Positions 43,686 to 61,004 of a DNA stretch of 64,000 bases are shown in pieces. The position numbers and the translations under genes were made by a program. Within the stretch, counting starts at the first letter, position 1; every line of letters begins with the position of its first letter. Source of the DNA: Fusobacterium necrophorum subsp. necrophorum (GTDB lineage: Bacteria > Fusobacteriota > Fusobacteriia > Fusobacteriales > Fusobacteriaceae). The notes below the pieces were generated by a model, which saw only the letters and a program-made list of their open reading frames with translations, did no database searches and had not been told where the DNA came from. The stretch covers positions 1,054,001 to 1,118,000 of the forward strand of contig NZ_CP034842.1 of the NCBI RefSeq assembly GCF_004006635.1. Direction: 5' to 3'.

Positions 43686-43697
43686 CTTCCTTTAAAC

Positions 43698-44258
43698 TTA
43701 TTTATTTTGAAGATAATAGTATAGATTTCTCGCAGCAATCGCATCTGCTAAGGCATTGTGAGCATTTTCCAAAGGAATTTGAAAGGCTTCACATAATGTT
43801 TCCAATTTATTGTTTTCCGTCTGTGGAAGTCTTCCCAAAATTTTTAAACATTTTGTAAAAGCTAAGGTATCAAATTCATTTTTGAAATCTATATAGGAAG
43901 CAATGAATTTTTCATTGCAACGATAAGCCCAGTTTCGTAGCATGTCTAAATCAAATTTTACATTATGCCCGACCACTGTAAATTTATCATTTTTATTGTA
44001 TTTATCAACGTATTTCCCTAAAATTTGAGTGAACATTTCACAAGTTAGCTGTGGAGAATCAAAACGGAAAATTTCTTCCCGAGTTAATTTGGTAACAGCT
44101 AAGGCTTCTTCCGAAATATCACTATCGGGAAAAGGGGCAGAATATAAATTGACAGTTTCTTTTACTTCCCCATCAATTTCTATGATTGCTGCCAGTTGAA
44201 TAATAGTGGAACGATAAGTTAGTCCGGTTGTTTCTGTATCGAAATAAAGTATTTTCAT
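43698..44258 (-). CDS. 3'-5' exonuclease, DEDDh family (DnaQ-like)
   Basis: 186 aa. Exo I: YFDTETTGLTY; Exo II: VVGHNVKFDLDMLRNW; Exo III: HNALADAIAARNLY with the DEDDh histidine. Similar in size to the PolIII epsilon exonuclease core but without a polymerase-binding tail, so it may be an independent DNA or RNA exonuclease. The next genes upstream are cutC and aspA, 21 bases away. Confidence 0.9.
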   Translation of the reverse strand: MKILYFDTETTGLTYRSTIIQLAAIIEIDGEVKETVNLYSAPFPDSDISEEALAVTKLTREEIFRFDSPQLTCEMFTQILGKYVDKYNKNDKFTVVGHNVKFDLDMLRNWAYRCNEKFIASYIDFKNEFDTLAFTKCLKILGRLPQTENNKLETLCEAFQIPLENAHNALADAIAARNLYYYLQNK

Positions 44259-44279
44259 AAAGTTATTTCCTTTCTAAAG

Positions 44280-44897
44280 CTATAATAAAGTTACAATTTT
44301 TTTTCCATGAAACTCATCTGTATGAATTTTTTCAGAACATTCTTTGATATTTTCAGAAGTTACCTTTCCTGCTGCCACGATGATAATCTTTCCGTTTGCT
44401 TTTTCAATCATTTTATTGAGAAGGGGAACTCCTTCTAAAGCTCTTTCTTGTTTTCCTGAAGTCAAAATCCTGTTACATCCCAATTCTATCAGCTTAGGAA
44501 TAGCCTCCAAAGGATTTTCCATTTCATCAATGGCTTTATGAAAAGTTATTTTCATCGGTTTTGCAGCTTCTATCAGGTATTGCAAAGAAGAAAGATCCAA
44601 TTTTTTGTCTTTGGTAAGAACTCCCAAAACAATTCCCTGTACCCCCAGACTTTTTGCTACGAGAATATCTTCCTTCATACTTTCTATTTCCTCTTTTGTA
44701 TAACAAAAATCTCCTCCTCTAGGGCGAATCATGACAAAGATAGGAATGTTGAGATATTGTACCGCCATTTTCATACAACCGTAAGAGGGAGTTGTTCCCC
44801 CTTCCAAAAGATTATCACAGAGTTCAATACGATCCGCTCCGTTTTTTTCCGCCAAAACAGCTTCTTGAAAAGAGCCTACACAGGCTTCTTTAATCAT
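44280..44897 (-). CDS. cutC: CutC family protein
   Basis: 205 aa TIM barrel. Recognisable: IKEACVGSFQEAVLAEKNGADRIELC, GGTTPSYG, MIRPRGGDFCYTKEE, TFHKAIDE, LTSGKQERALEGVPLL and the C-terminal DEFHGKK. CutC was named for copper homeostasis, but a direct copper role is disputed; functions in other organisms vary. It starts 8 bases inside the end of aspA, so both are translated from one message. Confidence 0.92.
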   Translation of the reverse strand: MIKEACVGSFQEAVLAEKNGADRIELCDNLLEGGTTPSYGCMKMAVQYLNIPIFVMIRPRGGDFCYTKEEIESMKEDILVAKSLGVQGIVLGVLTKDKKLDLSSLQYLIEAAKPMKITFHKAIDEMENPLEAIPKLIELGCNRILTSGKQERALEGVPLLNKMIEKANGKIIIVAAGKVTSENIKECSEKIHTDEFHGKKIVTLL

Positions 44898-46305
44898 GCT
44901 TTAACAGCTCCTTTCCGGCGATTCCCGGTTTTGTCATTTCAAAAGGATTTAAAATGATATCCAATTTTTCTTTTTCTAATAAACCTTGCTCCAATACCAA
45001 ATCATAAACAGGTTTTCCTGTCTTCAATGATAATTTTGCAATTTCCGCTGCAACTTTATATCCGATATGAGGGCTCAGAGCAGTTACAACTCCGACACTT
45101 CTTGTCAACCAATATTTGCAATCTTCTTCATTGACTTGAATCCCTGCAATACAGTTGTCTATAAAGGTACGAATTCCATTTGTCAAAATTTGAATAGATT
45201 GGAATAAGTTAAAGAATAAAACAGGCTCAAACACATTCAGTTCCAATTGTCCAGCTTCGGCTGCTTTTGTAATGGTAACATCATTTCCAAAAATTTGGAA
45301 GCAGACTTGATTCATAACTTCCGGAATTACCGGATTTACTTTTCCGGGCATAATCGAAGAACCGGGTTGTTCCTGCGGCAGAATCAGTTCTGCAATTCCT
45401 GCTTTTGGTCCGGAGGACATCAGACGAATATCATTCGCCGTTTTAGAAAGATTGACTGCACAAGTTTTTAAAATGGACGATAAATAAACAAAAGAATCCA
45501 AATTTCTGGTTCCGTCTACGAGGTCTTCACATTGAGAAAAAGAAAAACCTGTGACTTCCGACAAGACTTCTACAACTCTTTGAATATAATTTATATCGGC
45601 ATTCAAACCGGTTCCTACTGCAGTTGCTCCCATATTCACGAAAGAAAGTTCATACATGGCTGATTTTAAACGTTCTATATCCCGTTTTACAGGGCCTGAA
45701 AAAGCTCTAAATTCTTGTCCGACTCGGATGGGAACGGCGTCTTGTAAATGAGTTCTTCCCATTTTTATAATATGATCGTATTGTGTTGCCTTGGATTGAA
45801 AAGTGGAATACAAATCTTCCAGATTTTTTAGTAAATCTCGTAATAAAAATTGGATTGTTAATTTTCCGGAGGTTGGAACCACATCATTTGTAGATTGACC
45901 AAAATTTACATGGTCATTCGGATGAACCTTATCGTAAGTTCCAAGAGCTCCTCCCAAGAGTTCATTTGCACGATTCGCGATGACTTCATTCATATTCATA
46001 TTCATAGAGGTTCCCGCTCCCCCCTGAATCACATCGGTAATAAATTGATCCCTAAATTTTCCGGATATAATTTCATCTGCTGCCTGAATGATAGCTTTTG
46101 CAACGTCTTCTTGAATGGTTTCTGCCTCCATATTACAAATGGCCGCCGCTTTCTTCACATAGGCTAACGAAGAAATAAAAATAGGATTTAGGCGATAACC
46201 GGTAATAAAAAAATTATTTTTTGCTCGTAAAGTTTGTACTCCATAATAGGCTTCACTAGGAACTTGTAAGCTTCCAATCGAATCACTTTCTAATCGAAAA
46301 GTCAT
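44890..46305 (-). CDS. aspA: Aspartate ammonia-lyase
   Basis: 471 aa fumarase/aspartase superfamily protein. Signature loop GSSIMPGKVNP, N-terminal RLESDSIGSLQVPSEAYYGVQT, GGAGTSMNMNMNEV and HPNDHVNFGQSTNDVVPT are all present. The substrate pocket sequence and length favour aspartase over class II fumarase, which is very similar; the reaction is aspartate to fumarate plus ammonia. Fits amino-acid fermentation with the tyrosine lyase. AAAGGGGTG precedes ATG 46305; a TATAAT box lies ~35 bases upstream. Confidence 0.9.
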   Translation of the reverse strand: MTFRLESDSIGSLQVPSEAYYGVQTLRAKNNFFITGYRLNPIFISSLAYVKKAAAICNMEAETIQEDVAKAIIQAADEIISGKFRDQFITDVIQGGAGTSMNMNMNEVIANRANELLGGALGTYDKVHPNDHVNFGQSTNDVVPTSGKLTIQFLLRDLLKNLEDLYSTFQSKATQYDHIIKMGRTHLQDAVPIRVGQEFRAFSGPVKRDIERLKSAMYELSFVNMGATAVGTGLNADINYIQRVVEVLSEVTGFSFSQCEDLVDGTRNLDSFVYLSSILKTCAVNLSKTANDIRLMSSGPKAGIAELILPQEQPGSSIMPGKVNPVIPEVMNQVCFQIFGNDVTITKAAEAGQLELNVFEPVLFFNLFQSIQILTNGIRTFIDNCIAGIQVNEEDCKYWLTRSVGVVTALSPHIGYKVAAEIAKLSLKTGKPVYDLVLEQGLLEKEKLDIILNPFEMTKPGIAGKELLKHD

Positions 46306-46481
46306 GATAACACCCCTTTAAACTTAAATATATTATAATAATTTCTTGTAATTTACTTTCTGAAGGATTGAGCTTCCAAATAACTTCAAAATCAGTATAT
46401 ATTTAATACCTATAATAAATAATACTCTATTTTTTCATTGAATTCAAGATGAATAAAAAATAAAAAAAGTAAAAAATATAG
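46306..46481 (-). other. Intergenic DNA upstream of aspA and the rrn operon
   Basis: Very AT-rich. Contains the aspA promoter region (TATAAT near 46333 on the minus strand). No gene seen; the rrn promoter begins at 46482. Confidence 0.6.
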
Positions 46482-46510
46482 TTGACATTTTTTTTATAAG
46501 ATGATATTAT
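46482..46510 (+). promoter_or_regulatory. rRNA operon promoter
   Basis: Consensus TTGACA (46482-46487), 17-base AT spacer, TATTAT (46505-46510). A perfect CTGTAA-GAG-TTACAG palindrome (46520-46534) lies at the expected transcript 5' end. Confidence 0.85.
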
Positions 46511-46552
46511 ACTGATTGTCTGTAAGAGTTACAGACTTCTGAACCTTGAAAA

Positions 46553-46574
46553 CGGAATAGAAAAAGACAACAAG
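46553..46574 (+). other. 16S rRNA processing stem, left arm
   Basis: Pairs in most positions with 48147-48168 (arms begin CGGAATAG and end CTATTCCG) and so closes a stem around the 16S sequence, the normal RNase III substrate. Confidence 0.65.
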
Positions 46575-46626
46575 CAAACAACACAAACAAGGTGTAAAAA
46601 ATCAAAACAGTGAAACTGAGAAACAT

Positions 46627-48134
<1,508 letters not shown>

Positions 48135-48171
48135 CTAAGGAGTATTCTTGTTGTTCTTATCTATTCCGAAT

Positions 48172-48248
48172 GCGTTCGTAGCTCAGCTGGTTAGAGCACA
48201 CGCCTGATAAGCGTGAGGTCGGTGGTTCAAGTCCACTCGAACGCACCA
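48172..48248 (+). tRNA. tRNA-Ile (anticodon GAT)
   Basis: Complete cloverleaf of 77 bases with encoded CCA. Acceptor GCGTTCG / CGAACGC; anticodon arm CACGC-CTGATAA-GCGTG. Located in the 16S-23S spacer. Confidence 0.97.
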
Positions 48249-48253
48249 TATAT

Positions 48254-48330
48254 GGGGATATAGCTCAGTTTGGGAGAGCGACGCACTTGCACTGCGTAGG
48301 TCAGCGGTTCGATCCCGCTTATCTCCACCA
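48254..48330 (+). tRNA. tRNA-Ala (anticodon TGC)
   Basis: 77-base cloverleaf with encoded CCA. Acceptor GGGGATA / TATCTCC; anticodon arm ACGCA-CTTGCAC-TGCGT. Second spacer tRNA, five bases after tRNA-Ile. Confidence 0.97.
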
Positions 48331-48353
48331 TGTATTTTTTTTATGGACCTTGG

Positions 48354-48367
48354 AAACTGTATAGTAG
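48354..48367 (+). other. 23S rRNA processing stem, left arm
   Basis: AAACTGTATAGTAG is exactly complementary to 51366-51379, forming a perfect 14-bp stem around the 23S. A separate perfect hairpin (AACTCTAG-TTT-CTAGAGTT) lies at 48399-48417. Confidence 0.75.
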
Positions 48368-48438
48368 ATCAAAAAACAAACAAGAATAAAGAACAAAGAA
48401 CTCTAGTTTCTAGAGTTAGCTGTCAAAGAAAAAAACAA

Positions 48439-51352
<2,914 letters not shown>

Positions 51353-51437
51353 GGAGTTTGAGAGACTACTATACAGTTTTGAAGGTCTATGGGAAAAAAG
51401 CGATAGACAAGAAAGAAAAAGTATGTTATAGTAACAA

Positions 51438-51557
51438 TGCTTGGTGAGTATAGCTATGGGGGTACACCTAGACACATTCCGAACCTAGAAGTTAAGCCCA
51501 TATACGCAGAAAGTACTTGGTTGGAAGCGACCCGGGAGGATATGTATTTGCCAAGCT
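51438..51557 (+). rRNA. 5S ribosomal RNA
   Basis: About 120 bases, closed by GCTTGG / CCAAGC; contains the CCGAAC segment and the usual 5S spacing. A T6 run follows directly. Confidence 0.93.
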
Positions 51558-51574
51558 TTTTTCTCATAATATGT

Positions 51575-51650
51575 GCTGAATTAGCTCAACTGGTAGAGCA
51601 ACGGTATCGTAAACCGTAGGTTAGGTGTTCGATTCACCTATTCAGCACCA
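51575..51650 (+). tRNA. tRNA-Thr (anticodon CGT)
   Basis: 76-base cloverleaf with encoded CCA. Acceptor GCTGAAT / ATTCAGC; anticodon arm ACGGT-ATCGTAA-ACCGT; T-arm AGGTG-TTCGATT-CACCT. It ends the rRNA operon, 17 bases behind 5S. Its last 18 bases are part of the 34-base direct repeat. Confidence 0.97.
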
Positions 51651-51666
51651 TTGTTTTTTGTATTTT
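51633..51666 (+). repeat. attL-like direct repeat, left copy (3' end of tRNA-Thr)
   Basis: 34 bases identical to 53275-53308: the final 18 bases of tRNA-Thr plus 16 downstream. Integrase-mediated insertion at a tRNA 3' end gives this arrangement. Confidence 0.8.
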
Positions 51667-51780
51667 GCGAACAGTTGCGAAATAGTGGAATTTACAGGGG
51701 TTTCAGAAAATGAGTAGAAAAGTATTTTGCGAGAAAAAGCGATGTTTTGCGAAAGATAAGTGGATTTTAAGGGGATTTTT

Positions 51781-51967
51781 TTAAGAATAAAATGGGTCTT
51801 GAATTTTTAATAAAGTATTGATAGAATAATGATGAGACATAGAAATCAACTCCTTATAATTGGGTTTGGCGATTTAATTATATCCGAGTTTTTCTAATGT
51901 CTCAATTTTTTTTGAAAAAAATGGTGTTGGATGATCCGAGACCACCAACACCAAAAATTATACAACC
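51781..51967 (-). mobile_element. 5' fragment of an ISL3-type insertion sequence
   Basis: On the minus strand: a terminal sequence GGTTGTATAATTTTTGGTGT (from 51967), a hairpin GGTGTTGG / CCAACACC with T run, AAGGAG, then ATG 51840 and MSHHYSINTLLKIQD before the frame stops after 19 residues. Start sequence and terminal repeat resemble ISL3-family transposases from memory. Only the first codons remain. Confidence 0.45.
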
Positions 51968-51980
51968 AATAAAATAAGAA

Positions 51981-52011
51981 GAGCAGGATTAGTTTCCTGC
52001 TCATTTTTTAT
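51981..52011 (+). terminator. Terminator within the island
   Basis: GAGCAGGA / TCCTGCTC (51981-51988 with 51995-52002), loop TTAGTT, tail ATTTTTTATT. May now end rRNA operon transcription. Confidence 0.8.
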
Positions 52012-52094
52012 TAATGTATAACTTTATGGAATTAAAAAAGTATTTAAAAATTTAAAATTATTGAAAAAAATACGCACAAAAAAAATAAAAAATA

Positions 52095-52123
52095 TTGAAA
52101 AATATTTTCCTTGATATTATAAT
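52095..52123 (+). promoter_or_regulatory. Promoter of the P63C-domain gene
   Basis: TTGAAA (52095-52100), 17-base spacer, TATAAT (52118-52123), then AAGGAGG before ATG 52145. Confidence 0.75.
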
Positions 52124-52144
52124 AGAAAAAAAGGAGGTATTTTT

Positions 52145-53029
52145 ATGAAAACACATTTTAAAGTAACACATAGTGGTAATTTATTTATAGGAGAAAAAGA
52201 AATTAATTGTGCAGTATTAGAAAATGGACAAAGAATTATTACCCAAAGTAGTATTTATAAAGTTTTTGGTAAAACTAGAAGAGGAAGTCAAAGAGATGAG
52301 AAAACAGTACTTCCTAACTTCGTAACTTCTAAAAATTTACTAGCTTTCATAGATACTGATACAAAAAAAACATTTGAAGAAGTTGAATATTTAACGAAAA
52401 CAGGGAAGACTGCGACAGGATATAAAGCTGAAGTTATCCCTTGCATATGTGATATAATAATAGAAGCACACAATAGAGGAGCGCTGAATCAATCACAACA
52501 AGTACTTTATGAGCAATCTATGATATTGCTAAGAGCATTAGCAAAAGTGGGAATTACGGCATTAATTGACGAGGCTACAGGCTTTCAAAATGATAGACAG
52601 GCTCAGGAATTACAAAATTTATTGGTTAAATTTATTGGAGAGGATTTATTAAAATGGCAAAAAAGATTTCCAAACCAATTTTACAAAGAAATGTTTAGGC
52701 TTCATAAGTGGGATTATGATCCAAATTCAACAAAAAGGCCTGGATATGCAGGAGCTTTCACTATGAAATATGTATATGATCTATTTCCAAAAAAAGTTAT
52801 GGAAATAATAAAAAGAGAAAATCCGAAGACAATATCAAACAATCATTTGTATAGACACCATCAATTTTTAAGTGTAGATATAGGGATTCCTGAATTAGAT
52901 AGACACATTTCAAAATTACTAGGTGTAATGGCTTTATCTGATGATGTTGAAGATTTTGAAAAGAAATTTAAAAAAGCATTTGCTATTGAATTAGAAAGAA
53001 TAAAAGAAGAAAAAACAACTAAAAAATAA
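52145..53029 (+). CDS. P63C-domain protein (phage-associated)
   Basis: 294 aa. The N-terminal ~100 residues (FIGEKEINCAVLENGQRIITQSSIYKVFGK, then RRGSQRDEKTVLPNFV) and the segment IPCICDIIIEAHNRGALNQSQQ match the usual layout of P63C proteins, found mainly in prophages and mobile islands; their function is not established, though antirepressor-like roles have been proposed. The C-terminal half is helical (KWQKRFPNQFYKEMFRLHKWDY, HLYRHHQFLSVDIG) and ends in a Lys-rich tail. It has its own promoter and ribosome site and is intact, so it may still be expressed. It is the only complete gene between the tRNA-Thr repeats. Confidence 0.75.
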   Translation: MKTHFKVTHSGNLFIGEKEINCAVLENGQRIITQSSIYKVFGKTRRGSQRDEKTVLPNFVTSKNLLAFIDTDTKKTFEEVEYLTKTGKTATGYKAEVIPCICDIIIEAHNRGALNQSQQVLYEQSMILLRALAKVGITALIDEATGFQNDRQAQELQNLLVKFIGEDLLKWQKRFPNQFYKEMFRLHKWDYDPNSTKRPGYAGAFTMKYVYDLFPKKVMEIIKRENPKTISNNHLYRHHQFLSVDIGIPELDRHISKLLGVMALSDDVEDFEKKFKKAFAIELERIKEEKTTKK

Positions 53030-53274
53030 AGGAGCTTTTTGGGGTCAGTACGAGTGTGTGAACTTTTTTCTGTAAATTTACCTTCTATGGTTTTTTAATA
53101 AAATAAGTTAGAGTTAGAAATTTTTAACTCTTTAAAAATAATATAATAAGTCATTCAAAAATGTCAAGGGGGGTATGATTATTCAAACTGAAATTTTAAT
53201 GCTGTTACATACAGATTACATACTACATTTATTAAGTTTTTGTAAAATCGAGGAAACTTGCATTTTTATGTGAT
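53030..53274 (+). other. Right part of the island, no gene
   Basis: Contains a weak terminator (AGAGTTA / TAACTCT, 53110-53116 with 53125-53131) for the P63C gene. No reading frame or further repeat seen. Confidence 0.55.
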
Positions 53275-53308
53275 TTCACCTATTCAGCACCATTGTTTTT
53301 TGTATTTT
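53275..53308 (+). repeat. attR-like direct repeat, right copy
   Basis: Same 34 bases as 51633-51666, starting 1642 bases later. It has the 3' end of tRNA-Thr but no tRNA body. Confidence 0.8.
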
Positions 53309-53337
53309 TCTGTAATACGAATAGGAGTATTTTTGAT

Positions 53338-53392
53338 TCTTTGTCAAATAATGTTGATGAAGAGTAGAGTATGAAATTTTCAAGAGGATTTT
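53338..53392 (+). repeat. Copy 2 of the ~53-base intergenic repeat
   Basis: About three quarters identical to 31880-31938, with conserved blocks TCAAA, GATGAAGA, TAGA, GAAATTTT and AAGAG. Just before the large terminator. Confidence 0.45.
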
Positions 53393-53429
53393 AGGGATTT
53401 TGGAGACAAAATCTTTAGAATCCTTTTTT
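53386..53429 (+). terminator. Large terminator, probable original end of the rrn operon
   Basis: 17-bp stem with two G-T pairs (53386-53402 with 53407-53423), GAGA loop, six T. It stands right of the second tRNA-Thr repeat with no gene between, as expected if the island was inserted between tRNA-Thr and this terminator. Confidence 0.85.
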
Positions 53430-53472
53430 CTATGGGCTAGATTTTTATAGGTCTGTATTTAAATCTTTTTAT

Positions 53473-53552: not shown

Positions 53553-54461
53553 ATGATTGATTTAAGTAAGATGACAACTGAAAAAAGAAATCCGAATTCT
53601 TCAAACTTAAGCAGCTTAAGTATAAGAGAAGCAATAGAATTAATGAATCATGAAGATTACAAAGTTGTAGATTGTGTGAAAGAACAGATAAGTAACATTG
53701 AAAATGTGATTCAAATTTGCACAAAAGCTCTACAAAAAAAAGGTAGAATAATTTATATAGGAGCCGGAACCAGTGGGAGACTAGGTCTACTTGATGCCGT
53801 GGAGTGTCCACCTACCTTTGGTGTTGATTATAATACGGTAGTAGGCTTAATTGCCGGTGGGGAAAGGGCTTTTATAAAAGCGGTGGAAGGAGCGGAGGAC
53901 TCTAAAGAGCAAGCAGTGGAAGATCTAAAAGGTATAAATTTTTCAAAAGAGGATGTGCTGGTTGGAATAGCTGCCAGTGGAAGAACTCCTTATGTTATAG
54001 GGGCAATAAATTATGCGAAAGAAATTTTTGCCGAAGTATGTGCAGTGGTATGCAATAAGAATAGTGAAATTAGTAAAATTTGTAAAAATATTATTGAAGT
54101 AGAAGTAGGACCGGAAATTTTAACCGGCTCTACTCGACTGAAAGCAGGTACGGCAACTAAAATGGTTTTGAATATGATAAGTACGATATCTATGGTAAAT
54201 ATAGGAAAAGTATATAAAAACTATATGGTTGATGTAAAAACTTCTAATCAAAAATTAATGCTTAGAGCTAAAAATATCGTGAAAGAAGTAACTGGATGTA
54301 GCGAAGAAGAAGCAAATTTTGTACTTGAGAAATCAGAGGGGAGTGCAAAAATAGCAATTGTTATGTTACTTTTCAATTGTGATGTAAATAAGGCGAAGGA
54401 GAAGCTGGAGAAGGTGAATGGAAGAATACAGGATTTGAAAAGGAGTGATCATTATGACTAA
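53553..54461 (+). CDS. murQ: N-acetylmuramic acid 6-phosphate etherase
   Basis: 302 aa SIS-domain protein. GAGTSGRLGLLDAVECPPTFG and ASGRTPYVIGAI are the diagnostic MurQ segments, and the C-terminus has the helical LEKSEGSAKIAIVM unit. It cleaves the lactyl ether of MurNAc-6-phosphate to give GlcNAc-6-phosphate and lactate in peptidoglycan recycling or uptake. The PTS gene for the substrate overlaps its end by 8 bases. Confidence 0.96.
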   Translation: MIDLSKMTTEKRNPNSSNLSSLSIREAIELMNHEDYKVVDCVKEQISNIENVIQICTKALQKKGRIIYIGAGTSGRLGLLDAVECPPTFGVDYNTVVGLIAGGERAFIKAVEGAEDSKEQAVEDLKGINFSKEDVLVGIAASGRTPYVIGAINYAKEIFAEVCAVVCNKNSEISKICKNIIEVEVGPEILTGSTRLKAGTATKMVLNMISTISMVNIGKVYKNYMVDVKTSNQKLMLRAKNIVKEVTGCSEEEANFVLEKSEGSAKIAIVMLLFNCDVNKAKEKLEKVNGRIQDLKRSDHYD

Positions 54462-55866
54462 TTTGGAATTGGCAAAAAAAATGATTGAAAAGTTGGGAGG
54501 AAATGAAAATATTTCTCAAGCAACAAATTGTATGACTCGTTTGAGAGTCGATGTAAAAAATGTTAATCTTGTGAAAGTAGAAGAATTAAAAGCACTTGAA
54601 GGTGTTTTAGGGCTTATGGTAGCTGACAATCATTATCAAGTGATATTGGGACCGGGAAAAGTTCAAAAAATAGCAGATATTTGTTTTGGAGAACTGGGTC
54701 TAGCAAAACATACTGCAAGCTGGGAAGAAAATAAAGAAGCTATGAAGGCAAAACAAAGTCAAAATATGCTGCAAAGAACATTAAAGTCCATAGCCAGTAT
54801 ATTTGCTCCATTGATACCTGCAATTATAGCAGCCGGGCTACTGAATGGTTTTGGAAGTTTAATTGCTCAACTTATGAAGAATGGGACTTTATCTGAATCA
54901 TTTCAAATAGTTCAGTTATTCTTTACTTTAATCGGTGGAGGTTTCCTCGGATATTTTGCAATTTATACCGGTATCCGTTCTGCCGAAGTATTTGGAGCAA
55001 CTCCGGCTTTAGGTGGAATTATCGGTGGAATGAGTATAGGTGCCAATATTGTAGCAATCTCTAAAATATTAGGACTATTTAACGAAACAACACCACTGGA
55101 ATCTATATTAACCACCGGAAAAGGTGGAATTATTGGTGTGATTTTTGGAGTTTGGGTATTAGCTAAAGTTGAAAAATTTTTAAGAAAGAGAATTCCTGAT
55201 GTTTTAGAGTTAGTACTAACACCATTTTTATCAATGTTACTAACAGGTTTAATCTTTGTATTTGTAATAATGCCGCTTGCCGGATATGTTAGCGATGGAT
55301 TGGTTTTTGTTTTAAGTCTTATTATAAATTCCCCTATCCCCACCGTTAGAATCATAAGCGGGTTTGTACTGTCTGCTCTTTTCTTACCGATGGTGTTATT
55401 AGGATTACATCATGGTTTAATACCTATTTATGCTGTTCAATTAAGTGAAATGGGAGGAGTTTCTTTATTCCCTGTGCTTGCTATGGCAGGAGCAGGGCAA
55501 GTTGGAGCTGCTATTGCTATATATATAATGGCAAAGAGAGTTGGAAATAAAAAACTTATGGGAATAATTACAGGAGCCTTACCCGCAGGTTTCTTAGGAG
55601 TTGGAGAACCATTAATATACGGAGTTACATTACCTTTGTTTGTGCCGTTTATAACTGCGGGATTAGGAGCAGGGTTTGGTGGAGCTTATGTAACGTTGAC
55701 TCAAGTGATGTCAACGGCTTGGGGACCAAGTGGACTGGTAGCAATCCCTCTTATGTCAACTCCCGGTGGAATGAAAAATTACTTTATAGGACTTATTATT
55801 GCATATATTGCAGGCTTTATTGTTACAAAACTCGTAATGAAAGAAGAAAGTGTTAAAAATTTATAG
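54454..55866 (+). CDS. murP: PTS EIIBC for N-acetylmuramic acid (MurP-type)
   Basis: 470 aa from ATG 54454, which has AAAGGAG ahead and lies inside the end of murQ. Residues ~1-90 are an EIIB domain with phospho-cysteine Cys26 in ATNCMTRLRV; ~105-470 an EIIC membrane domain (SIFAPLIPAIIAAGLLNGFGSL, GFLGVGEPLIYGVTLPLF). No EIIA is fused, as in E. coli MurP, so an EIIA from elsewhere must phosphorylate it. Substrate inferred from the murQ partner. Confidence 0.92.
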   Translation: MTNLELAKKMIEKLGGNENISQATNCMTRLRVDVKNVNLVKVEELKALEGVLGLMVADNHYQVILGPGKVQKIADICFGELGLAKHTASWEENKEAMKAKQSQNMLQRTLKSIASIFAPLIPAIIAAGLLNGFGSLIAQLMKNGTLSESFQIVQLFFTLIGGGFLGYFAIYTGIRSAEVFGATPALGGIIGGMSIGANIVAISKILGLFNETTPLESILTTGKGGIIGVIFGVWVLAKVEKFLRKRIPDVLELVLTPFLSMLLTGLIFVFVIMPLAGYVSDGLVFVLSLIINSPIPTVRIISGFVLSALFLPMVLLGLHHGLIPIYAVQLSEMGGVSLFPVLAMAGAGQVGAAIAIYIMAKRVGNKKLMGIITGALPAGFLGVGEPLIYGVTLPLFVPFITAGLGAGFGGAYVTLTQVMSTAWGPSGLVAIPLMSTPGGMKNYFIGLIIAYIAGFIVTKLVMKEESVKNL

Positions 55867-55882
55867 GGAGAAATAAAAAAGA

Positions 55883-55928
55883 CCGATTAGAGATTTAAAA
55901 AAATCTATTCTAATCGGCTTTTTTATTT
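55883..55928 (+). terminator. Terminator of murQ-murP
   Basis: CCGATTAGA / TCTAATCGG (55883-55891 with 55909-55917) with inner pairing, tail CTTTTTTATTTT. Confidence 0.88.
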
Positions 55929-56139
55929 TGCCCTTTGATTTTGATTGAAAATTCTTAGAGTATCGATGGTAAATTTATCAGCATATGATTGAAAGGAGAA
56001 AAGTCTGGTGGACTTTACCGATATTTGATTTGAAATAGTGAATACATCTACAAGATAGAAGTAATATCTATTGATAAAAATAACATTATTTCTGTTGATT
56101 AAGAAGAAACAATGAAGGAAAGAATAAAATGACATACTC

Positions 56140-57264
56140 TTATTCTTCAATTCCGTTTTGTAGATAGAATAATAAATTTTTTAAAAATTTATCTCTTTTA
56201 GTGAAATTTCCTGTGTAAAAAAAATCAATTCCCATATAGTGAGAATACCCTAGTAATAGTACCGCAATCAGTTGTTTTTTTTGAAAATTCAAAAATAAAT
56301 CCCCGAGCAAGTTTTTGATGTAGAAATGGATATCCTCTTCTACAAATTGACTGTACACCTTAGGATAAATGAGTTCCAACTCCCGTATCAGGCTATATTT
56401 AAAAGGACTGTCCTTATAATATTCAAACAATAGATACAGAAAAGTAAGATAATTATCCAAGGTAGTTTGTTCTTGACGATAGTTATCTTTTAAAAAGTAA
56501 AAAACTTGCTTTCTTATACGGAATAAAATAATTTTTAAAAAATCCTCTTTATCTCTGAAATAGTTATAGAAAGTTCCGGTAGACAAATTCACTTTTTCTA
56601 CAAGGTCCTGAATTCTGAAAGAGGAGAACGATGTCGTTTTTAAGATTTCCAATCCGGAATTCAAGAAAGTACATCGAATATTGGAGCTGTTAAAAGGAAC
56701 TCTTAGATAAAAAGAAGAATCGTCCAACTCGGAAATATTCAGTTTAAGCGGTTCTGACAGACCGTACAATAATGTTTTAGCCAAAAAAGGGACATCGACA
56801 GTCAGTTCTTTTGTAGTATAGAAAATATTGATATATCGAATTCCGGACATCAAAAAAAAATGCTCATATTTATCCAAAGGTCTTTGATAAACTTTCTCCA
56901 ATGCTTCATGATAAACGAGCTTTAAATTTTTTTCATATTCTAAAAACTTATATTGTCCTTCTCGATAAACTTTAATTAAAGGAAATTCTTCCTTTGTTAA
57001 CGATAAATTGATTTTGATGAAAGACGTTAATCTTTCGAAGATACTATTTCCCTCTATATTCTGAAAATATGCATTGATTCTAACCGAAGTTTCTTGAAGT
57101 AAAAAGCAAAACAAATCCGTTTTATCCTTAAAATAAGTATAAAAAATACCGTTAGATACTTCGGCATTTCTACAAATCTCAACAATAGATACAGCTTCAT
57201 AATTTTTTTGACTGAAAAGCTGAATTGCGGAGTCTATTATTTTCTTTTTTTTCCCTTTTTTCAT
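56140..57264 (-). CDS. Double TetR-type regulator (two TetR units in one chain)
   Basis: 374 aa, about twice a normal TetR protein. First unit: residues ~8-52 give a full TetR helix-turn-helix (AIQLFSQKNYEAVSIVEICR, NAEVSNGIFYTYFKDKTDL) followed by a ~130-residue helical ligand domain. Second unit: residues ~195-248 repeat the fold (LEILKTTSFSSFRIQDLVEK, VNLSTGTFYNYFRDKEDF) and again a helical domain to the end. A single chain could form an intramolecular pseudo-dimer with two non-identical DNA-reading heads. No frameshift joins them; it reads through. Divergent from the CoA-transferase operon, its most likely target. Confidence 0.85.
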   Translation of the reverse strand: MKKGKKKKIIDSAIQLFSQKNYEAVSIVEICRNAEVSNGIFYTYFKDKTDLFCFLLQETSVRINAYFQNIEGNSIFERLTSFIKINLSLTKEEFPLIKVYREGQYKFLEYEKNLKLVYHEALEKVYQRPLDKYEHFFLMSGIRYINIFYTTKELTVDVPFLAKTLLYGLSEPLKLNISELDDSSFYLRVPFNSSNIRCTFLNSGLEILKTTSFSSFRIQDLVEKVNLSTGTFYNYFRDKEDFLKIILFRIRKQVFYFLKDNYRQEQTTLDNYLTFLYLLFEYYKDSPFKYSLIRELELIYPKVYSQFVEEDIHFYIKNLLGDLFLNFQKKQLIAVLLLGYSHYMGIDFFYTGNFTKRDKFLKNLLFYLQNGIEE

Positions 57265-57482
57265 AAATCCCCTCTTTTTCTTTTCTTTTTTTTATTATAT
57301 CACAAAAATTTTTCTTTATACATAAAAAAATAAATATTCATAAATAAACATTTTATATAGAGAACTTAGTGTTCTATTTAAGGAAAAAATAAACTTTTTT
57401 AAAAAAGTATTTACATTTTTTAAAAAATATTGTATATATAATTGAGAGTATATTCATTTTAGAAAACAAAAAGGAGGAGATT
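57265..57482. promoter_or_regulatory. Divergent control region between the TetR pair and its operon
   Basis: 218 bases, nearly all A/T. Contains AGAAC-TTAGT-GTTCT (57361-57375), two TATTCAT motifs (near 57335 and 57451) and a plus-strand promoter-like TTTACA, 17-base spacer, TATATA near 57411-57439. Likely holds the operator of the divergent regulator; exact site not proven. Confidence 0.45.
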
Positions 57483-59027
57483 ATGAAAATAATAGAAGCG
57501 AAGGATGTCCCTGGCTTAATAAAAAACGGATATTTTATTGCTGTTGACGGGTTTGTAGGAATAGGAATTCCTGAAGAAATTTTAAAAGAAATTGAGAATT
57601 CATTTTTATGCGAAAATGAACCTAGAAATCTTTCTTTAATTTTTGCTGCCGGATTTGGAGACGGTTCAGAAAAAGGATTAAACAGATTAGCACACAGAGG
57701 ATTGCTGAAAAAAGTGATAGGAGGGCATTGGGGATTGGCACCTTCACTGGGAAAATTGGCAGTTGAGGAAGAGATTGAGGCATATAATTTTCCACAGGGA
57801 GTTCTTTCACAAATGTTTCGAGATATGGCAGCGGGAAAACCGGGAACATTATCTTATGTAGGTTTAGAGACTTTTGTGGATCCGGATATCAATGGGGGAA
57901 AATTAAATTCCAAAACTTCTGAAAATTTGGTACAAAAAATAAAAATTGAGGAAGAAGACATTTTATTTTTTAAGGCTCCCAAATTGGATGTGGCAATATT
58001 GAGAGGAACTTCATCCGATAAAGACGGAAATATTTCCTTTGAAAAAGAAGCTTTGACTTTGGAAGCTTTATCCATTGCTACTGCAGTGAAAAATAATGGA
58101 GGAAAAGTATTTGTACAAGTGGAGAGAATGGTAAAATCAATTTCACCGAAAGATGTAAAAATACCGGGAATTTTAGTGGATTATGTTGTGATATCTGAAG
58201 CTTCCAATCACATGCAGACGCTTTCCGAGCAATTTAATGAAATGTACGTAAGTAATCATTTGATGCTTCAGGAGGGAGGTTTATCAGATTTTATATTGGA
58301 TGAACGTAAAATAATTGCCAGACGTTCCGCTATGGTTTTAGGAAAAGAAAAGAGAATCTTGAATTATGGAATCGGAATGCCGGAAATGATTCCTCTTGTT
58401 TTACGAGAAGAAAAACAGGAAAAATGGTTTATTCCGACAGTGGAACCGGGAGCCATAGGAGGAACTCCTATGGGAGGGCTAAATTTCGGGGCTTCTATCA
58501 ATCCGACTTGTATTATCGACCAACCTTATCAATTTGACTTTTATGATGGAGGAGGTTTGGATGTGGCTTTTTTAGGATTAGCTCAATGTGATGCAGTCGG
58601 AAACATCAATGTTTCCAAATTTGGACCTAAAATTGCCGGATGTGGAGGATTTATTAATATTACACAAAATGCAAAAGAAGTAGTATTTTGTGGGACCTTT
58701 ACTGCAGGGGGATTGAAAATAAAAGTAGAAAATGGAGAACTTAGAATTATTCAAGAAGGAAAAATTAAAAAATTTGTTTCCAATTTAGATCAAATTACAT
58801 TTTCAGGAAACTTGGCTGCCGGAAAAGGAAAAAAAGTCCTATATATTACAGAAAGAGCTGTTTTTGAATTGAGAAAAGAAGGACTTACTTTGATAGAAAT
58901 TGCACCGGGAATTGATTTACAAAAAGATATCTTGAATCAAATGGATTTTGTTCCCCTGATTGCAAAAGATTTGAAGCAAATAGATGCGAAGATTTATAAA
59001 GAAGAGAAAATGGAATTGGAATTTTAA
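57483..59027 (+). CDS. Family I CoA-transferase (YdiF/propionate-CoA-transferase type)
   Basis: 514 aa with both alpha and beta halves in one chain. The catalytic glutamate is Glu321 in PTVEPGAIGG. GGHWGLAPSLGKL and VDYVVISEASNHMQT match the alpha part; FYDGGGLDVAFLGLAQ with FVPLIA at the end the beta part. It moves CoA between acyl groups, e.g. from acetyl- or butyryl-CoA to an imported acid. AAAAGGAGGAG precedes ATG 57483. First gene of a three-gene operon with a permease and a hydratase. Confidence 0.9.
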   Translation: MKIIEAKDVPGLIKNGYFIAVDGFVGIGIPEEILKEIENSFLCENEPRNLSLIFAAGFGDGSEKGLNRLAHRGLLKKVIGGHWGLAPSLGKLAVEEEIEAYNFPQGVLSQMFRDMAAGKPGTLSYVGLETFVDPDINGGKLNSKTSENLVQKIKIEEEDILFFKAPKLDVAILRGTSSDKDGNISFEKEALTLEALSIATAVKNNGGKVFVQVERMVKSISPKDVKIPGILVDYVVISEASNHMQTLSEQFNEMYVSNHLMLQEGGLSDFILDERKIIARRSAMVLGKEKRILNYGIGMPEMIPLVLREEKQEKWFIPTVEPGAIGGTPMGGLNFGASINPTCIIDQPYQFDFYDGGGLDVAFLGLAQCDAVGNINVSKFGPKIAGCGGFINITQNAKEVVFCGTFTAGGLKIKVENGELRIIQEGKIKKFVSNLDQITFSGNLAAGKGKKVLYITERAVFELRKEGLTLIEIAPGIDLQKDILNQMDFVPLIAKDLKQIDAKIYKEEKMELEF

Positions 59028-59063
59028 TCATATTGAAATGAAGGAAAAAATAAGGAGGAAAGG

Positions 59064-60443
59064 ATGACTTTAGGAGTAATAGGAATTGTTATATCATTAG
59101 TATTATTGATGTATTTGGCATATCGAGGAATTTCCGTATTAATATTGGCACCTATTTTAGCATGTTTGGCAGCTTTTTTAGGCGGAGGAAGTCACTTGTT
59201 GGCTACATACACGGAAGTTTTCATGACAAGTTTAGGAGGATATGTTAGAAATTATTTTCCCATCTTTTTATTAGGAGCTATTTTTGGGAAGGTAATGGAG
59301 GATACGGGTTGTGCAAAAGCGATTGCTTATTTTATTTGTGAAAAATTAGGAAAAGAGAGAGCTATCTTGGCTGTTGTATTATCCTGTGCTATTTTGACTT
59401 ATGGAGGAGTTTCCTTATTTGTAGTGGCATTCGCAGTTTATCCTGTGGCGGTGGAATTGTATCGGGAAAGTCAAATTCCTAAAAGGTTTATTCCGGCTTC
59501 CATTGCGATTGGAGCTTTCACTTTTACTATGACTGCTTTACCGGGAACACCGCAAATTCAAAATGCAATTCCGATGAAATTTTTTGGGACGGATGTGTAT
59601 GCTGCACCTGTTTTAGGAATTATTGCTTCTGCCATTATGTTGTTCGGAGGCTTGGCATGGGTACAATTGAGAGCAAGAAATGCTATGGCACAAGGAGAAG
59701 GATACGGAAAGCATGAAAATGAGAAAATTACAAAATTAGATGTATCAAATCTTCCTTCTTTTTTCATTGCAATTTTACCTATTCTTCTAGTGTTGGTCGT
59801 GAGTTTTATTTTATCGAGAGAAATTTTTCCTGCTATGGATTTGTCTTATTTAGAATCGGAATATAGTACGGAAGCAAAAAAAGTAGTTGGAAACTGGAGT
59901 TTGATTATTTCTTTATTTTTAGCTATTGTAATTGCCATTATAACCAATATCAAGAGAATGAATCATGTGGTAAAGACTTTAAGTGATGGAGTACAGGGAT
60001 CTTTGTTGGCAATCATGAATACAGCTTCTGAGGTAGGATACGGAAATGTGATTGCAGGATTGGCAGCTTTTACAGTTGTAAAGGGAGCATTGCTGGGATT
60101 GTCTTCTAATCCTTTGATTTCAGAAGCGGTATCAGTATCTTCCCTAGCAGGAATTACCGGGTCGGCTTCCGGAGGATTGAGTATTGCATTGGGAGCTTTG
60201 GGAAGTACATATTTACAACAAGCTCAAGAATTGGGAATATCTCCGGAAGTACTTCATAGAATTGCTGCAATTGCATGCGGTGGTTTGGATACTATGCCTC
60301 ACAATGGAGCCGTGATTACCTTATTAGGTGTAACGGGCTTAACTCACCGTGAATCTTATGCGGATATTGGAATGTGTACGGTTGTTATCCCTACTATTTC
60401 CGTGATTTTCTGTGTAATTTTTGCAACACTTGGAGTCGTTTAA
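59064..60443 (+). CDS. GntP-family permease
   Basis: 459 aa with 11-12 membrane helices. GntP-family pattern: GGYVRNYFPIFLLGAIFGKVMEDTG, AILTYGGVSLFVVAFAVYPVA, TALPGTPQIQNAIPMKFFGT and the C-terminal IACGGLDTMPHNGAVITLLGVTGL. GntP relatives carry gluconate or other hydroxy acids and short-chain acids. The neighbours (CoA-transferase and enoyl-CoA hydratase) point to a hydroxy or short-chain carboxylate rather than gluconate. AAGGAGGAAAGG precedes ATG 59064. Confidence 0.88.
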   Translation: MTLGVIGIVISLVLLMYLAYRGISVLILAPILACLAAFLGGGSHLLATYTEVFMTSLGGYVRNYFPIFLLGAIFGKVMEDTGCAKAIAYFICEKLGKERAILAVVLSCAILTYGGVSLFVVAFAVYPVAVELYRESQIPKRFIPASIAIGAFTFTMTALPGTPQIQNAIPMKFFGTDVYAAPVLGIIASAIMLFGGLAWVQLRARNAMAQGEGYGKHENEKITKLDVSNLPSFFIAILPILLVLVVSFILSREIFPAMDLSYLESEYSTEAKKVVGNWSLIISLFLAIVIAIITNIKRMNHVVKTLSDGVQGSLLAIMNTASEVGYGNVIAGLAAFTVVKGALLGLSSNPLISEAVSVSSLAGITGSASGGLSIALGALGSTYLQQAQELGISPEVLHRIAAIACGGLDTMPHNGAVITLLGVTGLTHRESYADIGMCTVVIPTISVIFCVIFATLGVV

Positions 60444-60473
60444 GAGAGAAAGAAAAAATATCAGGAGGAAATT

Positions 60474-60878
60474 ATGAAATTTGAAGATTTGAAAATAGGA
60501 ATGAAAGATAGTATTACAAAAACAATTACAGAAACGGATGTCATCTTATATTCCGGAATTACACTTGATGTAAATCCCGCTCATTTAAATGAAGAGCATG
60601 CAAAAAAAACAATGTTTAAAAAGAGAATTGCTCATGGTATGTTGACAGCCGGTTTAATTTCTGCTGTTCTAGGAACAAAATTACCCGGAGAAGGTACTAT
60701 TTATATGGGGCAAGAAATTGCTTTTACAGCACCTGTTTATTTTGGAGATACGATTACTGCAAATGTAGAAATTATAGAGCTTATTCCGGAGAAGAAAAGA
60801 GTTTTATTATCTACGGTTTGTACCAATCAAGACGGAGTGGTTGTGTTAAGCGGAAAAGCAAAGGTAATGAAAGCATAA
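60474..60878 (+). CDS. MaoC-type (R)-specific enoyl-CoA hydratase
   Basis: 134 aa hot-dog protein. The PhaJ hydratase signature SGITLDVNPAHLNEEHA has catalytic Asp32 and His37 at the PhaJ spacing; RIAHGMLTAG completes the pocket. It adds or removes water at (R)-3-hydroxyacyl-CoA. Members of the same fold can act on other acyl-CoA substrates. Third gene of the operon, 30 bases behind the permease, closed by a strong terminator. AGGAGGAA precedes ATG 60474. Confidence 0.9.
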   Translation: MKFEDLKIGMKDSITKTITETDVILYSGITLDVNPAHLNEEHAKKTMFKKRIAHGMLTAGLISAVLGTKLPGEGTIYMGQEIAFTAPVYFGDTITANVEIIELIPEKKRVLLSTVCTNQDGVVVLSGKAKVMKA

Positions 60879-60905
60879 ATTTTAGAGGTATTTTAATTTA
60901 GAATA

Positions 60906-60940
60906 AAGAGCTGGATTCGAAAGAATCCAGCTCTTATTTT
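60906..60940. terminator. Terminator of the CoA-transferase operon, possibly bidirectional
   Basis: Perfect 13-bp stem (60906-60918 with 60923-60935), GAAA tetraloop, short T tail. It could also serve the minus-strand adhesin gene ending at 61005. Confidence 0.85.
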
Positions 60941-61004
60941 CTCCACCTTTGAAAAGCTATATTTTGTTGTTAAGGAGGAGGAAAGAGATTTCAAGATAGT
61001 GGTT

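What the first reader, a model, noticed from the sequence alone, without database searches (positions are those of the whole stretch)
51633..53308. Small island integrated into tRNA-Thr, bounded by exact 34-base repeats
The last 18 bases of tRNA-Thr plus 16 flanking bases reappear unchanged 1642 bases later. This is the footprint of integrase-mediated insertion at a tRNA 3' end. The element inserted within a ribosomal RNA operon and now keeps only a P63C-domain gene and an IS fragment, with no integrase. The single intact gene may be cargo retained by selection.
Basis: partly seen in the sequence, partly recalled or inferred. Interest (0 to 1): 0.75.

Follow-up and report, generated by a model that had tools for sequence, protein, structure and literature searches.

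The report
Prophage remnant beside a tRNA gene
A 1.6-kb scar of a virus that once inserted itself at a threonine tRNA gene of a Fusobacterium still carries one intact viral gene of unknown function; the scar is ordinary, but the gene family deserves a test.

Summary
Confirmed: an exact 34-mer lies at 51633-51666 and 53275-53308; the left copy holds the last 18 bases of tRNA-Thr(CGT). Colinearity with the only other held genome of the genus ends one base past that tRNA. The 143 bases after the tRNA match, at 142 of 143, the left end of a ~54-kb prophage at tRNA-Leu of the same chromosome, which has a 19-base att repeat and an integrase. Best reading: a prophage or satellite eroded to its left arm, a terminator, one gene and attR. 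The IS fragment is real (174 bases of ISL3 type, 8-base target duplication). The insertion follows the last gene of the rRNA operon; it does not split it. The gene encodes a P63C protein, found in 2 of 96 genomes of the order, 78% identical to one at the end of a prophage in another family. In 6 of 13 phage-type contexts read it stands directly behind the lysogeny repressor, the slot of bstA in phage BTP1, but it is not BstA by sequence. Selection for the gene and a defence role are hypotheses. A two-flank empty site could not be shown: the right flank is rearranged.

The parts
51575..51650 (+). tRNA-Thr(CGT), last gene of the rRNA operon; insertion target
51633..51666 (+). left copy of the 34-base repeat (attL core)
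51651..51793 (+). left-end module of the element; 142 of 143 bases identical to the left end of the tRNA-Leu prophage (G000:C1:489107-489249)
51665..51752 (+). four TTGCGA motifs (starts 51665, 51675, 51727, 51747), candidate integrase arm-binding sites (inference)
51786..51793 (.). AATAAAAT, left copy of the 8-base target duplication of the IS fragment
51794..51967 (-). fragment of an ISL3-family insertion sequence (5' end of the transposase gene and one outer end); absent from the same module at tRNA-Leu
51968..51975 (.). AATAAAAT, right copy of the 8-base target duplication
51981..52012 (+). intrinsic terminator (8-pair stem, T tail), also present at the left end of the tRNA-Leu prophage
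52095..52123 (+). promoter-like TTGAAA-17-TATAAT (11 of 12); consensus match only, such matches are not enriched over shuffles here
52145..53029 (+). P63C-domain gene, 294 aa, intact; AAGGAGG seven bases upstream of the ATG
53052..53168 (+). intergenic repeat also at G000:C1:1878748-1878861 and 2044733-2044621; nature unknown
53275..53308 (+). right copy of the 34-base repeat (attR core, or internal att of a former tandem)
53330..53434 (.). solo end of an ISL3-type IS with many genomic copies, just outside the island

Best explanation
A temperate phage or satellite with a tyrosine integrase recombined its attP with the 3' end of tRNA-Thr(CGT), rebuilding the tRNA and leaving the element behind it. 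At least at its left end it was a close relative of the prophage now at tRNA-Leu. Deletions then removed the integrase, the phage body and most of an ISL3-family IS that had landed in the left arm. What is left is attL with its arm region, a terminator, one gene with its own start signals (P63C) and attR. The P63C protein most likely is an accessory protein that prophages make during lysogeny, binding DNA through a Bro-N/KilA-N-like N-terminal domain and acting in conflict between phages or between phage and host. Shown: the repeats, the shared left end, the colinearity break at the tRNA, the IS with its target duplication, the prophage context of the closest homologue. Inferred: the integrase, the order of losses, the function of P63C and why it was kept.
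For: Exact 34-mer, 2 copies, 0 in shuffles. Window 43694-51651 aligns to the other genome of the genus at 91% and stops one base past the tRNA; that genome has its tRNA 3' end once in the 44 kb read, at up to 3 mismatches, and no insert. The left-end module is 99% identical over 152 bases in one other place of the own genome, directly behind tRNA-Leu; in 61 genomes of the family, own included, the search found it in full only in the own one. tRNA-Leu element: 19-base repeat at 489089-489107 and 543239-543257, integrase, terminase small subunit, DNA polymerase, helicase, baseplate J; it overlaps the prophage the genome paper gives at 477708-543489 (PMC6386562, whole text). Four TTGCGA in 88 bases against at most one per 100 bases elsewhere in the window. 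P63C is a mobile gene: 47 phage and 17 plasmid records, 549 of 600 kept candidate stretches of a viral scan; the 78% homologue in G035 follows tail, fibre and endolysin genes.
Against: No integrase, capsid or other recognisable phage gene is left in the 1.6 kb, so its phage nature rests on the ends and on P63C. The right part (53170-53274) gave no match at the right end of the tRNA-Leu prophage (blastn, E up to 0.1), and that prophage has no P63C gene. The right flank is rearranged: the post-tRNA genes of G001 are at G000 2423338, and window 54445-63900 has only weak or short matches in G001 (40 of 191 candidates scored). The 16 bases after CCA in the right copy equal element DNA at tRNA-Leu, whose own attR reads differently; one simple insertion does not by itself explain this.
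Confidence: 0.8

Rival explanations
1. Tandem-array remnant: two related elements stood one behind the other at tRNA-Thr. The second 34-mer is the internal att plus the first 16 bases of the second element, whose body was deleted, so 53309 onwards is not the old attB flank.
For: The 16 bases after CCA in the right copy are identical to the left end of the element family, which at tRNA-Leu is element DNA, while the Leu attR continues differently. An IS end starts 21 bases beyond, and colinearity with the sister genome is lost there.
Against: An attP that shares 34 bases with attB would give the same repeat; no other trace of a second element was found.
Confidence: 0.3
2. Integrase-less mobile unit: the island is not dead but is moved in trans by the integrase of the tRNA-Leu prophage, with which it shares the left arm (a cis-mobilisable element).
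For: Both att copies are exact, the arm region is 99% shared, and an integrase with a 374-aa open frame is in the same genome.
Against: The right arms are unlike; the target tRNA differs (Thr against Leu); no second copy of the gene was found in this genome, and none in the other 60 genomes searched of the family.
Confidence: 0.1
3. Chance or non-integrative duplication: the 34-mer arose by slippage, IS-driven rearrangement or gene conversion, without integrase.
For: The region holds IS ends and the right flank is rearranged.
Against: The left copy is in register with the tRNA 3' end; the adjoining 143 bases recur at another tRNA 3' end that carries a prophage; 0 in 100 shuffles.
Confidence: 0.05

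Closest known systems
The prophage of F. necrophorum ATCC 25286 (PMC6386562; repeat-bounded here at 489107-543257, tRNA-Leu)
   Same: Left-end module, terminator, insertion at a tRNA 3' end, same genome
   Different: Carries an integrase and phage genes; other tRNA; no P63C gene; other right end
Decayed prophages and tRNA-associated islands with att repeats but no integrase (kind recalled)
   Same: Direct repeat of the tRNA 3' end around foreign DNA, integrase lost, cargo gene left
   Different: Only 1.6 kb with one gene; right boundary ambiguous
P63C-domain proteins (PF10546; phrog_2384; p63 of Myxococcus phage Mx8)
   Same: PF10546 E 2.7e-29, phrog_2384 E 4.5e-95, predicted fold matches p63 of Mx8 at E 6.3e-7
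   Different: Here the gene stands alone, without its phage
BstA abortive-infection protein of prophage BTP1 (PMC8585504)
   Different: No significant sequence homology (hhalign probability 1.1%; blastp of the ST104 protein E 0.038), other PHROG, no PADLOC BstA match
Streptococcus satellite phage Javan441
   Same: P63C gene 36% identical, next to the integrase at the element end
   Different: 8.3 kb, 19 annotated genes, integrase in three annotated pieces

Membership tests
Element integrated at a tRNA 3' end by a tyrosine integrase | Direct repeat that includes the tRNA 3' end | tested here: met
Element integrated at a tRNA 3' end by a tyrosine integrase | Integrase gene in the element | tested here: not met
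   5 PF00589 matches in the genome, none in the island; so it is filed as a remnant, not as an element able to move by itself
Element integrated at a tRNA 3' end by a tyrosine integrase | Relatives with one copy and no insert (empty site, both flanks) | tested here: inconclusive
   G001 has the tRNA end once, without insert, and a colinear left flank, but the right flank is rearranged; a genome-contig scan for the tRNA end found 0
Element integrated at a tRNA 3' end by a tyrosine integrase | End shared with a related integrated element at another site | tested here: met
   152 bases, 99%, behind tRNA-Leu
Cis-mobilisable (integrase-less) element | Excision or transfer with a helper | not testable with these tools
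   needs PCR or reads
P63C protein family | PF10546 match above the gathering score | tested here: met
   102.1 bits against 26.1
BstA | Sequence match to BstA models or protein | tested here: not met
   the true BstA does match the PADLOC model
BstA | Blocks phage DNA replication, cognate aba element | not testable with these tools
   phenotype
Bro-N/KilA-N-type DNA-binding domain | Fold of the N-terminal domain | tested here: inconclusive
   Viral library: below E 0.001 only K7YPE6 and p63 of Mx8; weaker Bro-N, KilA and antirepressor rows. PDB: best Foldseek E 1.4; VIA rows up to Z 6.0, among them 1bm8 Z 2.8 and 4ux5 Z 2.5. No Pfam match to such a domain
ISL3 insertion sequence (51794-51967) | Transposase with DDE_Tnp_ISL3 | tested here: not met
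   fragment only; the copy at G000:C1:2401615-2402817 matches PF01610 E 1.4e-51
ISL3 insertion sequence (51794-51967) | 8-base target duplication (recalled for the family) | tested here: met
   AATAAAAT on both sides, single at tRNA-Leu

The most novel reading that the evidence does not exclude
P63C proteins are a second family, unrelated in sequence to BstA, of anti-phage proteins made during lysogeny, sharing the slot behind the repressor of temperate phages; this Fusobacterium kept the gene after losing the phage because it protects the cell.
Probability: 0.3. Interest if true: 0.65.

Novelty: new member of a known kind. Interest (0 to 1): 0.33.

Why it matters
The scar itself is a routine product of phage integration and decay. 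Its use is that a prophage has been stripped down to one gene of a widespread phage family for which I found no functional study, and that this family turns up behind the lysogeny repressor in phages or prophages of Salmonella, E. coli, Erwinia and Gordonia. That makes a concrete, cheap test of a defence or exclusion role possible. It also adds a second phage attachment site, at tRNA-Thr, to a genome whose paper lists one prophage region.

Tried and rejected
Empty site in other species: genome-contig scan for the tRNA-Thr end, 0 hits. Relatives of the protein by single-sequence scans: genome contigs, 81 candidate stretches, none confirmed; viral contigs, 5, none confirmed. Left-end sequence in viral contigs: two exact patterns, 0 hits each.

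BstA identity of P63C: rejected by sequence. hhalign (P63C alignment) and blastp (ST104 protein) both touch the same N-terminal stretch of BstA, E about 0.04 in a single comparison, too weak to count.

Inversion between the IS ends at 53332 and 2420191 as cause of the broken right flank: considered; it does not put the right genes together. Left open.

P63C regularly beside the integrase: not supported. I scanned 81 neighbour proteins, 78 nearest neighbours at 41 viral loci plus 3 more picked by hand (so the count leans towards integrase); 3 matched the integrase family phrog_1.

Solved structures: phmmer best E 0.52; Foldseek against PDB, none at E 0.001 or better; VIA rows up to Z 6.0 are not used as a claim of fold. 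The promoter match counts little: 13 promoter-like sites found against 11.4 expected; terminators 4 against 0.4. NCBIfam gave nothing for the window protein.

Full report
Where it is. The window lies at 1054001-1118000 of a single 2,678,415-base chromosome. That length equals the published chromosome of Fusobacterium necrophorum subsp. necrophorum ATCC 25286 (PMC6386562, whole text read), so I take this to be the strain; the identification rests on the length and on the position of the prophage.

The observation. The 34-mer is exact at 51633-51666 and 53275-53308, with 0 matches in each of 100 shuffles. tRNA-Thr(CGT), 51575-51650, ends in the left copy; it follows 16S, tRNA-Ile, tRNA-Ala, 23S and 5S. 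The insertion is therefore behind the last gene of the operon and splits no rRNA gene. Between the copies there is one substantial gene, P63C, 52145-53029. Of the 5 integrase-domain matches in the genome none is here. No third copy of the 34-mer was seen; the genome search that could show one scored 40 of 179 candidate places, and ten other held stretches of the chromosome have none at up to 5 mismatches.

Comparison with the sister genome. One other genome of the genus is held (G001, 1.7 Mb). The two are colinear, with gaps, from window 22032; the last block, window 43694-51651, is 91% identical and ends one base past the tRNA. In G001 the tRNA is followed by other DNA and other genes, and its 3' end occurs once in the 44 kb read. 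In G000 the orthologues of those genes are 1.3 Mb away at 2423338-2427443. Window 54445-63900 has only weak or short matches in G001 (40 of 191 candidates scored), and from about 1120467 the chromosome matches G001 1400739-1415916 in reverse. So the left boundary of the insertion is supported, while the right flank was rearranged in one of the lineages and cannot serve as the other half of an empty-site test.

The shared left end. Window 51642-51793 has a 99% copy at G000:C1:489098-489249, directly behind tRNA-Leu(CAA) at 489020-489106; after the tRNA 142 of 143 bases agree. The 19 bases GTCCCACCATCGGCACCAT stand at 489089-489107 and again at 543239-543257. Between them are an integrase near the left end (490724-491848, minus), terminase small subunit, DNA polymerase, helicase, baseplate J and other phage genes, and a second integrase-domain ORF of 217 aa near the right end. 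The genome paper lists one prophage region at 477708-543489; the repeat places the left end at tRNA-Leu. In 61 genomes of the family, own included, the search found the full module only in the own genome; three others gave matches of 21 to 40 bases (which scored at most 14 candidates a genome). The module holds four TTGCGA motifs, starts 51665, 51675, 51727 and 51747; elsewhere in the window no 100-base stretch has more than one on either strand, and 0 of 20,000 mononucleotide shuffles of the module reached four. Direct repeats beside a core are what integrase arm sites look like (recalled); that these are arm sites is inference.

The IS fragment. At tRNA-Leu the module runs through a single AATAAAAT into a terminator. 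At tRNA-Thr AATAAAAT is doubled, with 174 bases in between (51794-51967) that are 98-99% identical to the ends of ISL3-family elements at 2402842 and 1506841. So an ISL3 element inserted in the arm and later lost most of itself. A solo IS end (53330-53434) lies 21 bases beyond the right copy; similar ends are numerous in both genomes.

A caveat on the right copy. At tRNA-Leu, TTGTTTTTTGTATTTT after CCA is element DNA, and the Leu attR continues with TATAGAAAGC. At tRNA-Thr the same 16 bases follow CCA in both copies. Either the phage's attP shared 34 bases with the host site, or the right copy is the internal att of a former tandem, with 16 bases of a second element left. I cannot decide; I give the second 0.3.

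The gene. P63C is preceded by AAGGAGG, a TTGAAA-17-TATAAT match at 52095-52123 and a terminator at 51981-52012; terminators are enriched over shuffles (4 against 0.4), promoter-like sites are not (13 against 11.4). By PF10546 the gene is in 2 of 96 genomes of the order, some of them incomplete. The other, G035 of another family, has a 78% identical protein that follows baseplate, fibre and endolysin genes; after it come one 139-aa ORF of unclear origin and a dihydroorotase-like gene (my reading of the sequence), so it lies at the end of that prophage, whose exact ends I did not determine. Nei-Gojobori dN 0.149, dS 1.70, ratio 0.088 over 294 codons: purifying selection over that divergence, with dS near saturation; it does not show selection since the phage was lost.

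The family. I read 15 of those 64 records with their annotation: 13 phage-type contexts and two small plasmids. They were chosen for variety, not at random. In 6 of the 13 the gene is the next gene behind, and on the strand of, the repressor or the regulator in the repressor's place: ST104, SPN9CC, SI8, Midgardsormr38, Kuwabara and the prophage-like stretch in plasmid CP098966. Five of these share a P22/lambda-like layout, so they are not independent; Kuwabara (Gordonia) is. In two it neighbours the integrase (Javan441, DC1); in Petra and Lodos it is two and three genes from the integrase; in SEN34 and ST2-8624 it is among nin-type genes; in Pkon1 beside tail genes. Among 81 neighbour proteins of viral loci only 3 matched the integrase family. 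In BTP1 the slot behind the repressor is held by bstA, an abortive-infection gene that suppresses phage DNA replication (PMC8585504, passages). P63C is not BstA by sequence.

Structure. AlphaFold2 on 42 sequences gave mean pLDDT 90.5 but pTM 0.61, so the domains are trusted more than their arrangement. In the viral library the two matches under E 0.001 are an unnamed protein and p63 of phage Mx8, followed by weaker Bro-N, KilA and antirepressor rows. PDB gave no significant match. A Bro-N/KilA-N-like N-terminal domain is the likely reading, not a proven one.

Literature. Searches for 'P63C domain', 'P63C', 'Fusobacterium' with 'P63C', and 'Mx8' with 'p63' and 'Myxococcus' gave three papers that mention the bacterial domain (passages read): a Paracoccus phage study, a strain-marker study, and a Clostridium study in which a P63C gene lies in a mobile element with capsid, portal and recombinase genes. 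None of the passages tests its function. The library holds open-licence papers only.

I re-counted against the calls and ran, which placed the tRNA-Leu repeat at 543239-543257 and confirmed the single tRNA end in G001.

Verdict. A prophage remnant at tRNA-Thr, well supported on the left, ambiguous on the right; ordinary as a kind. The P63C family in lysogeny regions is the part worth a test.

Noticed in passing
G000:C1:489107-543257 (L082, L083, L086, L087): The prophage region published at 477708-543489 has a 19-base att repeat that places its left end at tRNA-Leu(CAA); an integrase-domain ORF lies near each end, which hints at two elements or a composite.
   Followed up: partly
window 51651 against G001:C1:935814: A large rearrangement between the two held genomes of the genus has its breakpoint at or near the tRNA-Thr 3' end; the genes that follow the tRNA in G001 lie 1.3 Mb away in G000.
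   Followed up: partly
window 53330-53434: A solo ISL3-type end of about 100 bases with many similar copies in both genomes of the genus; may act as a small non-autonomous element or terminator.
   Followed up: no
window 53052-53168; G000:C1:1878748-1878861 and 2044733-2044621: An intergenic repeat of about 115 bases, 87-91% identical, of unknown nature, once in the island and twice elsewhere.
   Followed up: no
G000 489410-489880 (L082:19410-19880), with 489278-489499 repeated at 516105 and 536530: An IS91-type transposase-like sequence (family named from recall) in at least three copies in the tRNA-Leu prophage region, one between its attL and integrase.
   Followed up: no
viral P63C loci, e.g. 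L107, L113, L140: Several P63C proteins carry an extra N-terminal stretch of the type KARAxxLTPEQRxEIA, absent from the Fusobacterium protein.
   Followed up: no
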